DNA of 6,530 nt from Rugosibacter sp. (lineage in GTDB: Bacteria; Pseudomonadota; Gammaproteobacteria; Burkholderiales; Rhodocyclaceae), in contig JALRCC010000046.1 in assembly GCA_023257495.1 (NCBI GenBank), positions 1 through 6,530 on the forward strand. The letters are read 5' to 3'. A program made the translations under genes and the position numbers. How positions within the stretch are numbered: the first letter of the stretch is position 1; every line of letters begins with the position of its first letter. Shown piece by piece: positions 1-1,247 of the stretch. The notes beneath the pieces are model-generated. The model worked only from the letters and a program-made list of their open reading frames with translations. It ran no database searches and was not told the origin of the DNA.

Positions 1-1247
1 CGGCTGGCCCACAGGTAGCGGTTGTAACCGCCAAAGAGCTCATCCCCACCATCACCCGACAGGCTCACCGTGACATGGCGGCGCGCCAGTTCAGAAACCA
101 GCAAGGTGGGGATCTGCGACGAATCGGCAAAGGGTTCGTCGTATAAAGAAGGCAAGCGCGGAATCACCGCCATCGCCTGTTCTGCCGTGACATACAGCTC
201 GGTATGCTCGGTGCCCAGATGCGCCGCCACCGCGTGGGCGTGCTGCGCCTCGTTATAGCCTGCCTCGTGAAAGCCGATGGTGAAGGTTTGCACCGGCCGC
301 GTTGACTGCGCCTGCATCAAGGCCACGACGGTGGAAGAATCAACGCCGCCAGAAAGAAATGCCCCCAGCGGCACATCCGCCACCATCTGCCCGCCAATGG
401 CCTGGCGCAGCAGGGTGTCGAGTTCATTGACTGTTGTTTCATCGTTCAAATCACGACGCACGCCAGCTTCGGCGGCATCACGCGCGCGCCAGTAAAAACT
501 CGGCGCTGGTGAGACGCCGCGAAGCAAGTACCCTTGGGGTGCGCCGACGGGCGCATCCGCGGCCAGCGTCAGCCAGCTCCCCGGCGGCAATTTGGCGATG
601 CCGCGATAAATTGAATAGGGTGCGGGCACATAGTTATGCCGCAAATACAGCGCCAGCACGTCGCGGTCAATCTCACCGCGAAAGGCCGGATGCGCGCGCA
701 GCGCTTTCAATTCCGAACCAAACAAAAACACCTCGCCCTGCCAGCCGTAATACAACGGCTTTTCGCCCAAGCGGTCGCGCGCCAGCGTGAGTGAGCGAGT
801 TTCTCTATCCCACAACGCCAAGGCAAACATGCCGACGCATTTTTTCAGCGTCGTCTCAATGCCCCAGGCTTCGAATGCGGCGAGCAGGGTTTCGGTATCT
901 GAGTGTCCGCGCCAAAAGCGCGCCGCACCCCCAGGAGACTGGCTGCGCGGCGTCTCATCAGAGCCGACTTTTGCGAGCTCGGCGCGCAGATCGAGATGGT
1001 TGTATATCTCGCCGTTGAAGGCGATCACATACCGCCCGCTGGATGAGGCCATCGGCTGATGTCCAGCAGGGGAAAGATCAAGGATGGACAACCGCCGGTG
1101 CGCCAGGGCGATGCCCGCCGCTTCATCGACCCAGACGCCTGCATCATCCGGGCCACGATGGGTTATAGCGTCGGCCATGCGGCGCGCCACGCCGCCGGCA
1201 TTTGCCGCCAGACCGGCCGGCATGAAAAAACCGCTTAATCCGCACAT
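1..1247 (-). CDS. asnB: Asparagine synthetase-like glutamine amidotransferase (AsnB family), 3' end cut by window edge
   Basis: My own translation gives 415 codons from ATG at 1247, open to the left edge; the usual family length is about 550-650 residues. The N-terminal Ntn glutaminase domain (about 1-200) begins MCGLSGFF, so Cys2 is the nucleophile once Met is removed. HRGPDDAG (30-37), HRRLSILD (50-57), FNGEIYN (77-83) and HSDTE (115-119) match the glutamine-binding motifs. The ATP-pyrophosphatase domain shows the PP-loop SGGVDSS (299-305) and SGDGGDELFGGYNRY (397-411). The family transfers glutamine ammonia to a carboxylate activated by ATP, classically aspartate to asparagine. In polysaccharide loci homologues are thought to amidate sugar acids, which is possible here but cannot be read from the sequence. 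Start choice is fixed by the obligatory Met-Cys; the upstream Shine-Dalgarno is weak. Two oddities are extra peptides at about 95-108 and 235-249, each encoded by a copy of one repeated DNA element. Both catalytic domains otherwise look intact. Confidence 0.95.
   Translation of the reverse strand, partial: MCGLSGFFMPAGLAANAGGVARRMADAITHRGPDDAGVWVDEAAGIALAHRRLSILDLSPAGHQPMASSSGRYVIAFNGEIYNHLDLRAELAKVGSDETPRSQSPGGAARFWRGHSDTETLLAAFEAWGIETTLKKCVGMFALALWDRETRSLTLARDRLGEKPLYYGWQGEVFLFGSELKALRAHPAFRGEIDRDVLALYLRHNYVPAPYSIYRGIAKLPPGSWLTLAADAPVGAPQGYLLRGVSPAPSFYWRARDAAEAGVRRDLNDETTVNELDTLLRQAIGGQMVADVPLGAFLSGGVDSSTVVALMQAQSTRPVQTFTIGFHEAGYNEAQHAHAVAAHLGTEHTELYVTAEQAMAVIPRLPSLYDEPFADSSQIPTLLVSELARRHVTVSLSGDGGDELFGGYNRYLWAS
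502..543 (-). repeat. Dispersed 42-bp element, copy B, inserted in frame in asnB
   Basis: This is the inverted partner of the element at 924-965, read here in the same sense as asnB. It starts CGCACCCC, carries the CGCGGCGTCTCA core and ends ACCAGCGCC. It encodes about residues 235-249 (GAPQGYLLRGVSPAP), in the linker between the glutaminase and synthetase domains, just after the conserved LPPGSWLTL and before FYW. That linker is variable in the family, which would tolerate an insert. Because the two copies are read in opposite directions, the two encoded peptides share no sequence, so the DNA similarity cannot come from selection on the protein. Confidence 0.75.
924..965 (+). repeat. Dispersed 42-bp element, copy A, inserted in frame in asnB
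   Basis: Read on the plus strand this stretch starts CGCACCCC and ends in GGCGTCTCATCAGAGCC. It aligns without gaps to the minus strand of 502-543, with 35 of 42 bases identical by my hand alignment; the longest shared run covers the CGCGGCGTCTCA core. It lies antisense to asnB and encodes about residues 95-108 (GSDETPRSQSPGGA), between the conserved EIYNH and GHSDTE motifs of the glutaminase domain. Other AsnB proteins have only a short loop there. The length of 42 bases equals 14 codons, so the frame is kept. Together with adjacent bases, CGCCGC (921-926) can pair with GCGGCG (947-952), a weak palindromic character. This looks like a small nomadic repeat, comparable in behaviour to Rickettsia palindromic elements; the family identity is not known to me. 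Confidence 0.75.

What the first reader, a model, noticed from the sequence alone, without database searches (positions are those of the whole stretch)
502..965. Two inverted copies of a 42-bp nomadic element inserted in frame inside one asnB gene
Seen directly: plus strand 924-965 and minus strand 502-543 align ungapped at 35/42 bases. They lie in opposite orientation, so they encode unrelated peptides (GSDETPRSQSPGGA and GAPQGYLLRGVSPAP). Each sits where AsnB proteins normally have a short loop or linker, and 42 bases is exactly 14 codons. In E. coli AsnB, as I recall, the glutamine-binding Asn74 and Asp98 are 24 residues apart; here the corresponding Asn78 and Asp117 are 39 apart, an excess close to one element. 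Inference: a mobile short repeat that can be read in either orientation without stops and builds new peptide segments into essential proteins, like Rickettsia palindromic elements but in another lineage.
Basis: partly seen in the sequence, partly recalled or inferred. Interest (0 to 1): 0.78.

Follow-up and report, generated by a model that had tools for sequence, protein, structure and literature searches.

The report
Genome-wide 25-bp self-watermark, uptake-sequence-like
The two repeats in this gene belong to a 25-letter DNA motif scattered hundreds of times through the genomes of a group of environmental bacteria; it resembles the DNA "self" labels that a few bacteria use when taking up DNA, although that use has not been tested here.

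Summary
In detail: 495-546 and the reverse complement of 921-972 match at 43/52 (best in 40 shuffles 33/52). The repeat is a 25-bp, non-palindromic motif, AAAAGTCGGCGCTGGTGAKACGGCG; both asnB copies also carry a 27-bp (9-codon) hairpin. The 9 genomes held for the genus (Rugosibacter) have 254-414 copies each (<=3 mismatches), reversed pattern 0.

I reject "mobile element" as the main reading. In 1.2 Mb of one genome 131 of 201 sites lie inside genes. Outside three deserts, two with conjugation genes, spacing is more even than random. The motif is better conserved than its flanks, has dialects in other genera, and often arises by substitution without length change (TrmD, UvrC), though insertions also occur (BirA, GatA, AsnB).

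Most of this matches DNA uptake sequences, stated to be known only in Neisseriaceae and Pasteurellaceae (PMC12616744, passages). Best explanation: a third, independent uptake-sequence-like watermark. Uptake is untested, and the candidate receptor family does not discriminate (112 of 121 genomes).

The parts
3..1247 (-). asnB, asparagine synthase (glutamine-hydrolysing), 3' end outside the window; host gene of two copies
   Evidence: ORF; homologues named asparagine synthase, with PF00733, PF13522, PF13537
495..519 (+). 25-bp motif copy 1 (opposite to asnB; reads R-G-V-S-P-A-P-S-F in asnB), 37.0 bits
   Evidence: PWM scan; frame
495..546 (+). 52-bp form of copy 1: motif plus 27-bp hairpin module (517-543)
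   Evidence: hairpin (the outer stem is imperfect in this copy)
948..972 (-). 25-bp motif copy 2 (same strand as asnB; reads A-K-V-G-S-D-E-T-P), 32.9 bits
921..972 (-). 52-bp form of copy 2: motif plus 27-bp hairpin module (924-950)
   Evidence: fold z -2.65
3693..3717 (+). third motif copy, uninterrupted 25-mer, between ORF 1340-3622 (-) and ORF 3741-4874 (-), 30.7 bits

Best explanation
The repeat is a chromosome-wide, oriented, protein-recognised DNA motif (25 bp, AAAAGTCGGCGCTGGTGAKACGGCG in Rugosibacter, genus dialects elsewhere). It most likely works as a DNA uptake sequence: a surface pilin of the competence machinery prefers DNA bearing it, so incoming DNA from relatives recombines more often and the motif is spread and kept wherever a protein loop or intergenic stretch tolerates it. 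In genes it is built by substitution or arrives as a short in-frame insertion, so it writes peptides (KVGAG[DE]TA, AVSPAPTF and others) into core enzymes. A second layer of 27-bp or longer hairpin modules nests in some copies, including both in this asnB. Shown: abundance, 25-bp bounds, dialects, even spacing in two genomes (one after leaving out deserts), absence from three long stretches, conservation of the DNA itself, substitution origin at several sites. Inferred: recognition by a protein, and uptake as the function.
For: Copies: 254-414 per genome in 9 of 9 genomes of the genus, 0 for the reversed pattern. Motif of 25 bp, 33 bits, flanks at most 0.2 bits per position. Spacing in G003 outside 3 gaps >40 kb: CV 0.78 vs 0.99+-0.06, 0 of 2000 simulations as low; gaps <500 bp 6 vs 19.5 expected. 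G029, another genus: CV 0.78 vs 0.98+-0.10, 0.7% as low; G008 gaps <500 bp 3 vs 12.6. The second and third deserts hold conjugation genes. Orthologous identity 0.902 in the motif vs 0.82 beside it and about 0.86-0.88 further out; motif > flank in 92 of 129, < in 27. Orthologue differences fall at the degenerate positions 5, 16, 17, 19, 23-25 (14-25%) and are 2-11% elsewhere. No length change at TrmD and, in G159, at UvrC; 17 of 30 and 10 of 27 sites. Motif-bearing genomes cluster on the UvrC tree: 2 changes vs 10.0 in shuffles, 0 of 500 as low. ComEC in 9 of 9; ComP_DUS-family pilin in G002, G003 and G008. Published DUS traits that match: permissive parts of the core genome, motif itself conserved, absent from recently acquired genes, often opposite gaps (PMC2397512; passages, section 11).
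Against: No uptake or transformation data. ComP_DUS pilins occur in 112 of 121 family genomes, motif-bearing or not, and G350 (50 copies, a draft) has none; cysteine counts do not separate the groups either. ComEC is widespread (10 of 14 control genomes). 25 bp is longer than a DUS (about 13) though within the USS span (up to 32). Copies (roughly one per 4-6 kb) are fewer than the thousands stated for DUS/USS genomes and vary more in sequence than I recall for DUS. Inverted pairs, described as frequent for DUS/USS, are rare: 2 pairs <80 bp in 201 sites. Over all of G003's 1.2 Mb spacing is clumped (CV 1.83); the evenness appears only after leaving out deserts by a cut chosen after seeing them. 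G002 spacing CV is 1.22, not even, though its short gaps are fewer than expected (6 vs 12.3). The first desert (80 kb) showed no conjugation gene among 4 proteins tested. Sites are enriched about 3-fold outside genes. Hairpin modules have no counterpart that I know of in DUS/USS. Conservation is partly ascertained, since query sites were chosen near the consensus, and many of the 129 pairs are reciprocal.
Confidence: 0.52

Rival explanations
1. A chromosome-wide binding site with another job (nucleoid organisation, segregation, repair or a methylation/restriction system), maintained by selection in place.
For: Same facts that show a conserved, oriented, in part evenly spaced DNA motif; no functional test separates it from uptake.
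Against: Absent from long stretches, two of them with conjugation genes, which a genome-wide organising site need not avoid; strands about equally used (106 of 201 on +) with no obvious arm skew in 1.2 Mb, not formally tested; patchy over the family (14 of 121 genomes with >=20 copies); information (33 bits) far above the roughly 14 bits that about 490 sites (extrapolated) in 2.9 Mb need by my arithmetic.
Confidence: 0.2
2. A dispersed mobile element (REP/RPE/MITE-like) whose full form is the 52- to 109-bp hairpin version, with the 25-mer as a decayed or hairpin-less derivative.
For: 52-bp and longer forms with shared interiors (27, 45, 66, 84 bp) exist; the nine extra residues come and go at the same AsnB site (P0001, P0004, P0006 with, P0002, P0003, P0007 without; protein level); in-frame insertions in BirA (12 aa), QOR (9 aa), GatA (about 8 aa), AsnB site 1 (16 aa relative to P0010); insertions of 4 or more residues at 10 of 30 and 7 of 27 sites; enriched about 3-fold outside genes.
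Against: Substitution without length change at TrmD, UvrC and others; even spacing in G003 outside deserts and G029; position-specific conservation between orthologues; no palindrome in the 25-mer (read directly); Y1_Tnp (RAYT-type) genes not found in 3 of 9 genomes that have 345-414 copies (drafts of unknown completeness), and only 4 of 8 such loci hold even one site.
Confidence: 0.22
3. Chance or ancestral coding similarity inside one asnB gene.
For: KVGAG-type peptides occur at the same loop in AsnBs of other taxa.
Against: 43/52 vs 33/52 at best in shuffles; hundreds of copies elsewhere, also intergenic.
Confidence: 0.01

Closest known systems
DNA uptake sequence (DUS) of Neisseriaceae
   Same: High copy number, dialects, one reading frame closed by TGA (passages of PMC3630211), sites in permissive regions while the motif itself is conserved, absent from recently acquired genes, often opposite gaps (PMC2397512, passages, section 11).
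   Different: Unrelated 25-bp sequence instead of about 10-13 bp; another bacterial family; lower density; few inverted pairs; optional hairpin modules; uptake untested.
Uptake signal sequence (USS) of Pasteurellaceae
   Same: Long extended motif (up to 32 nt) and two types (passages of PMC12616744), high copy.
   Different: USS is a 9-nt core plus discontinuous AT-rich segments; this motif is continuous and GC-rich after its A-run.
Rickettsia palindromic elements and intragenic REPs
   Same: Short repeats found in frame within protein genes (passages of PMC3733652).
   Different: Those are palindromic and tagged CGTC or GTAG; here the core is not palindromic and often arises by substitution.
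Betaproteobacterial repeat element (BRE)
   Same: Repeats of about 90 bp in Betaproteobacteria, some entirely within coding sequences (passages of PMC3110155); the long forms here (91-109 bp) are of that size.
   Different: At most 29 copies per genome there; its sequence was not in the passages seen and was not compared.

Membership tests
DNA uptake sequence (DUS/USS) | Hundreds to thousands of copies, far above chance, on both strands | tested here: met
   254-414 per genome in 9 of 9, 0 in reversed control
DNA uptake sequence (DUS/USS) | Dialects between taxa | tested here: met
   Rugosibacter vs G029 consensus; G350 variant among its first listed hits
DNA uptake sequence (DUS/USS) | Dialects congruent with phylogeny | not tested
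   only presence was put on a tree: 14 motif-bearing genomes need 2 changes on a UvrC tree of 29 rows, shuffled mean 10.0
DNA uptake sequence (DUS/USS) | Sites in permissive regions while the motif itself is conserved | tested here: met
   0.902 in motif, 0.82 adjacent, about 0.86-0.88 further out, n=129, many pairs reciprocal
DNA uptake sequence (DUS/USS) | Absent from recently acquired DNA | tested here: inconclusive
   3 deserts of 80, 43 and 123 kb; conjugation genes in the second and third, none among 4 proteins of the first
DNA uptake sequence (DUS/USS) | Spacing more even than random (recalled as a trait of USS/DUS; not in the passages I read) | tested here: inconclusive
   G003 outside deserts 0 of 2000 as low, but CV 1.83 with them; G029 0.7%; G008 CV 0.71 without simulation; G002 CV 1.22; gaps <500 bp below expectation in all four
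DNA uptake sequence (DUS/USS) | Frequent inverted pairs acting as terminators | tested here: not met
   2 pairs <80 bp among 201 sites; described as frequent, not as required
DNA uptake sequence (DUS/USS) | Enhances DNA uptake or transformation | not testable with these tools
   needs an experiment
DNA uptake sequence (DUS/USS) | Specific receptor pilin | tested here: inconclusive
   ComP_DUS (PF16732) in 112 of 121 family genomes, 0 of 14 controls; not correlated with the motif
Rickettsia palindromic element / REP | Palindromic unit | tested here: not met
   the 25-mer has direct CGGCG repeats (read directly); only the optional 27-bp module forms the consensus hairpin
Rickettsia palindromic element / REP | Found in frame inside genes | tested here: met
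   AsnB, BirA, GatA, QOR
REP with RAYT transposase | Association with a RAYT gene | tested here: not met
   Y1_Tnp in 6 of 9 genomes; the 3 without a match have 345-414 copies; 4 of 8 Y1_Tnp loci hold one site
BRE | Sequence homology to BRE | not tested
   sequence not in the passages read

The most novel reading that the evidence does not exclude
A third, independently evolved DNA-uptake self-label exists in a clade of the family of Rugosibacter. It has an unusually long 25-bp motif that has rewritten loops of core enzymes (UvrC, TrmD, BirA, GatA, AsnB), and it is itself used as a landing site by short hairpin elements whose 27-bp (9-codon) length lets them enter the protein-coding copies without breaking the frame.
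Probability: 0.42. Interest if true: 0.88.

Novelty: new variant of a known kind. Interest (0 to 1): 0.74.

Why it matters
Sequence-marked DNA uptake is stated in a 2025 paper to be known in only two bacterial families (PMC12616744, passages). A third, unrelated motif in another lineage would show that such self-labels evolve repeatedly, would give a new system to find receptor and motif co-evolving, and would make this environmental group a candidate for natural transformation. It also shows DNA-level pressure writing the same short peptides into many enzymes, which matters for reading protein loops and 'orphan' insertions in annotation.

Tried and rejected
Pattern scan of viral contigs and a blastn of the copy at 490-550 against plasmids: no match. 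Rfam on the window and five G003 pieces: only tRNA and glycine riboswitch reached the threshold. Covariance model R1 over 9 genomes hit its ceiling of 150 scored candidates, and its weak hits of odd length are not counted as copies; I used substitution-only and PWM counts with reversed controls instead. Pair counts for the hairpin gave 82% paired cells vs 31-50% slid, but shuffles did not separate (162 of 500 as high), so covariation is not claimed. One search used a best-match regex flag that lost most sites (18 instead of 181 in G003) and is superseded. The composite-element scan was too loose (1736 rows, mostly chance; its output was cut); only the 12 rows with intact left half and an exact 27-bp interior in 1.99 Mb are used. 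RAYT origin rejected. ComP_DUS presence as a discriminating marker rejected. Clean empty sites with target duplications were looked for among G003, G008 and G002: of 129 spanning alignments, 115 share the motif, 1 has a gap of 15 or more bases over it, 13 are other; no clear duplication was seen. Homology to BRE could not be tested. Structure prediction was not used. Papers: PMC3110155, PMC3733652, PMC12616744, PMC3630211 seen as passages; PMC2397512 as passages and one section; all others as search listings only.

Full report
Observation. The pair is real and longer than stated. The window's longest inverted repeat is 495-546 / 921-972, 52 nt. It scores 43/52, against at most 33/52 in 40 Markov shuffles. 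Both copies are in frame in asnB on the minus strand.

Where it comes from. A pattern from the two copies hit 2 stretches in the collection of one genome for each of 84,980 species, both titled Rugosibacter MAGs, and none in viral contigs. With up to 3 mismatches a 29-base inner pattern occurs 15 and 11 times in those two genomes and 0 times reversed. Nine genomes are held for that genus; I call them Rugosibacter after the two titled records.

What the unit is. In the first 1.2 Mb of G003 (contig 2,934,611 bp) most of the relatives listed share only the left part. The most frequent 12-mer of that stretch, AAAGTCGGCGCT, lies inside the motif (113 times). The 25-mer AAAAGTCGGCGCTGGTGATACGGCG with up to 6 substitutions occurs 181 times, the reversed pattern once. 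An iterated weight matrix gives 201 sites, 33 bits, with at most 0.2 bits per position in the 15 bases either side. Over whole genomes with up to 3 mismatches the counts are 254-414 in 9 of 9 genomes, reversed 0. The 52-bp form seen twice in the window is this motif with a 27-bp hairpin, CGCCGC(..CAAG..CTTG..)GCGGCG, entering after base 22. In 1.99 Mb of three genomes, 12 rows have an intact left half and exactly a 27-bp interior; longer interiors of 45, 66 and 84 bp also occur. In AsnB orthologues the 9 extra residues are present at site 2 in P0001, P0004 and P0006 and absent in P0002, P0003 and P0007.

Genes. With my own gene caller (1088 genes, 89% coding; not checked against an annotation), 113 of the 181 regex sites lie inside genes, 59 between genes, 9 over gene ends; random placement would put 86% inside. 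With the 201-site set 131 are inside; frames: same strand +2 (KVGAG[DE]TA) 57, opposite +2 (AVSPAPTF) 27, opposite 0 18, same +1 16, opposite +1 11, same 0 (the frame with TGA in the consensus) 2. In G029, 61 of 95 sites are inside predicted genes.

Insertion or substitution. Against solved structures, TrmD carries a 23/25 site with no gap, LeuC with none or one residue, while BirA, GatA and QOR have 12, about 8 and 9 extra residues. Between G003 and another motif-bearing genus, G029 (400 kb, 127 reciprocal best hits), 30 G003 sites could be tested: 17 without length change, 10 insertions of 4 or more residues, 3 other. In the other direction, of 27 G029 sites 10 showed no change, 7 were insertions, 10 other. 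Low-scoring sites in these lists may be chance, some alignments are poor (flank identity down to 0), and several high-scoring sites are shared by both genera. UvrC is the clearest case. Of 29 orthologues, 28 read [KR]-[VLM]-x-x-[GSE]-[ED] before PDL[IV]LIDGG or a close variant (G327 differs), at the same length except for one extra residue in G003 and G002 and a long insertion in G006. In G159 the peptide is KVGAGETA with a 40.0-bit DNA motif and no length change; in G003 the same with one extra residue and 42.4 bits; in G006 it stands beside the long insertion. None of the 15 zero-copy UvrC loci has a site above 20 bits, against 13 of 14 loci of motif-bearing genomes (G351, the 30th genome, gave only fragments and was dropped).

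Spacing and deserts. Over all of G003's 1.2 Mb the spacing is clumped (CV 1.83) because of three gaps above 40 kb (60-141, 533-575, 943-1066 kb). Without them CV is 0.78, random 0.99+-0.06, 0 of 2000 as low; gaps below 500 bp are 6 against 19.5 expected. The 40-kb cut was made after seeing the data. Without any exclusion G029 gives CV 0.78, random 0.98+-0.10, 0.7% as low; gaps below 500 bp 6 vs 10.5. Pooled over contigs, with per-contig thresholds and no simulation, G008 gives 0.71 and G002 1.22; short gaps are 3 vs 12.6 and 6 vs 12.3. Of 10 proteins drawn from the deserts, 3 are conjugation proteins (second and third deserts); the 4 from the first desert show none.

Conservation. In 129 orthologous alignments among G003, G008 and G002, with gaps left out, identity is 0.902 in the motif, 0.82 in the adjacent 25 bases and about 0.86-0.88 further out; the motif beats its flanks in 92 and loses in 27 (Wilcoxon p 1.7e-11, but many pairs are reciprocal). 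For the 33 genic G003 sites the motif value is 0.927. Differences fall at the degenerate positions 5, 16, 17, 19 and 23-25 and are 2-11% elsewhere. Because genic copies use several frames, this points to constraint on DNA rather than on one peptide. With gaps counted as mismatches the motif is 0.878 against 0.79 and 0.77. Query sites were chosen near the consensus, which favours conservation somewhat.

Range. In 300 genomes of the order, 24 have a match, 4 of them with 51 or more. In 121 genomes of the family, with another pattern (AAANTCGGCGCTGGNNNNACGGC, 1 mismatch), 52 have a match and 14 have 20 or more (20-622); reversed controls are at most 1 per strand. In several low-copy genomes the few hits sit close together (e.g. 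G383, 5 of 7 within 1,461-1,502 kb), as transferred segments would. On the UvrC tree the 14 motif-bearing genomes need 2 changes (shuffled mean 10.0, 0 of 500 as low); 13 of them form a group with G322 (86/89 support). The 16 zero-copy genomes asked for in that comparison were picked by me from the zero-copy rows.

Function. ComEC is present in 9 of 9 genomes of the genus, but also in 10 of 14 control genomes. ComP_DUS-family pilins are present in 112 of 121 family genomes and in none of 14 controls, so a receptor-type protein is at hand but does not track the motif; G350, with 50 copies, has none. Of 22 pilin sequences taken from 21 genomes, 13 have four cysteines, from both groups (the ORF picked for G320 looks like a different pilin).

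Literature. [quoted passage not shown] PMC2397512 (passages, section 11) reports that uptake sequences are conserved while lying in permissive parts of the core genome, are absent from recently acquired genes and often stand opposite gaps. PMC3630211 (passages) reports dialects and a stop codon in one frame. That uptake sequences are evenly spaced is recalled, not read. Searches that found no report for this lineage, by listing: and the literal 14-mers; only open-licence full text was searched.

Conclusion. The evidence favours a maintained DNA motif of the uptake-sequence kind over a mobile element, with about one chance in two that uptake is its actual job. The hairpin modules remain the least explained part.

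Noticed in passing
AsnB orthologues P0001-P0120, loop before WRGHSDTE: The same AsnB loop carries KVGAGGTA-type peptides in at least 15 of 120 listed orthologues, also from other taxa (e.g. P0063 Tepidimonas, KIGAGGTA), and SPGERGE / LSPEGRGE-type peptides (another repeat family, by recall) in others such as P0024, P0026, P0068. DNA of these was not seen.
   Followed up: partly
window 1782-1862: Three tandem 27-nt repeats inside ORF 1340-3622 (-), encoding a repeated TEQPAQP-type peptide.
   Followed up: no
G006 UvrC, L251: Long insertion in UvrC next to the motif, containing an SPTLSRASGG peptide that looks like yet another repeat family.
   Followed up: no
P0005: AsnB whose site 1 reads as if an extra interior followed AAAGTC as well as the 3' hairpin: a possible second insertion point in the motif (DNA not seen).
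   Followed up: partly
G350: A variant motif AAAGTCGACGCTGG is common among its listed hits, in a genome without a ComP_DUS pilin match.
   Followed up: no
G383:C1:1461266-1502266, G359 C66 and C104: Low-copy genomes hold clusters of the motif, possibly transferred segments from motif-bearing relatives.
   Followed up: no
L094 (G003 desert 533-575 kb): A conjugation coupling protein and an AIPR abortive-infection protein in a motif-free stretch.
   Followed up: no
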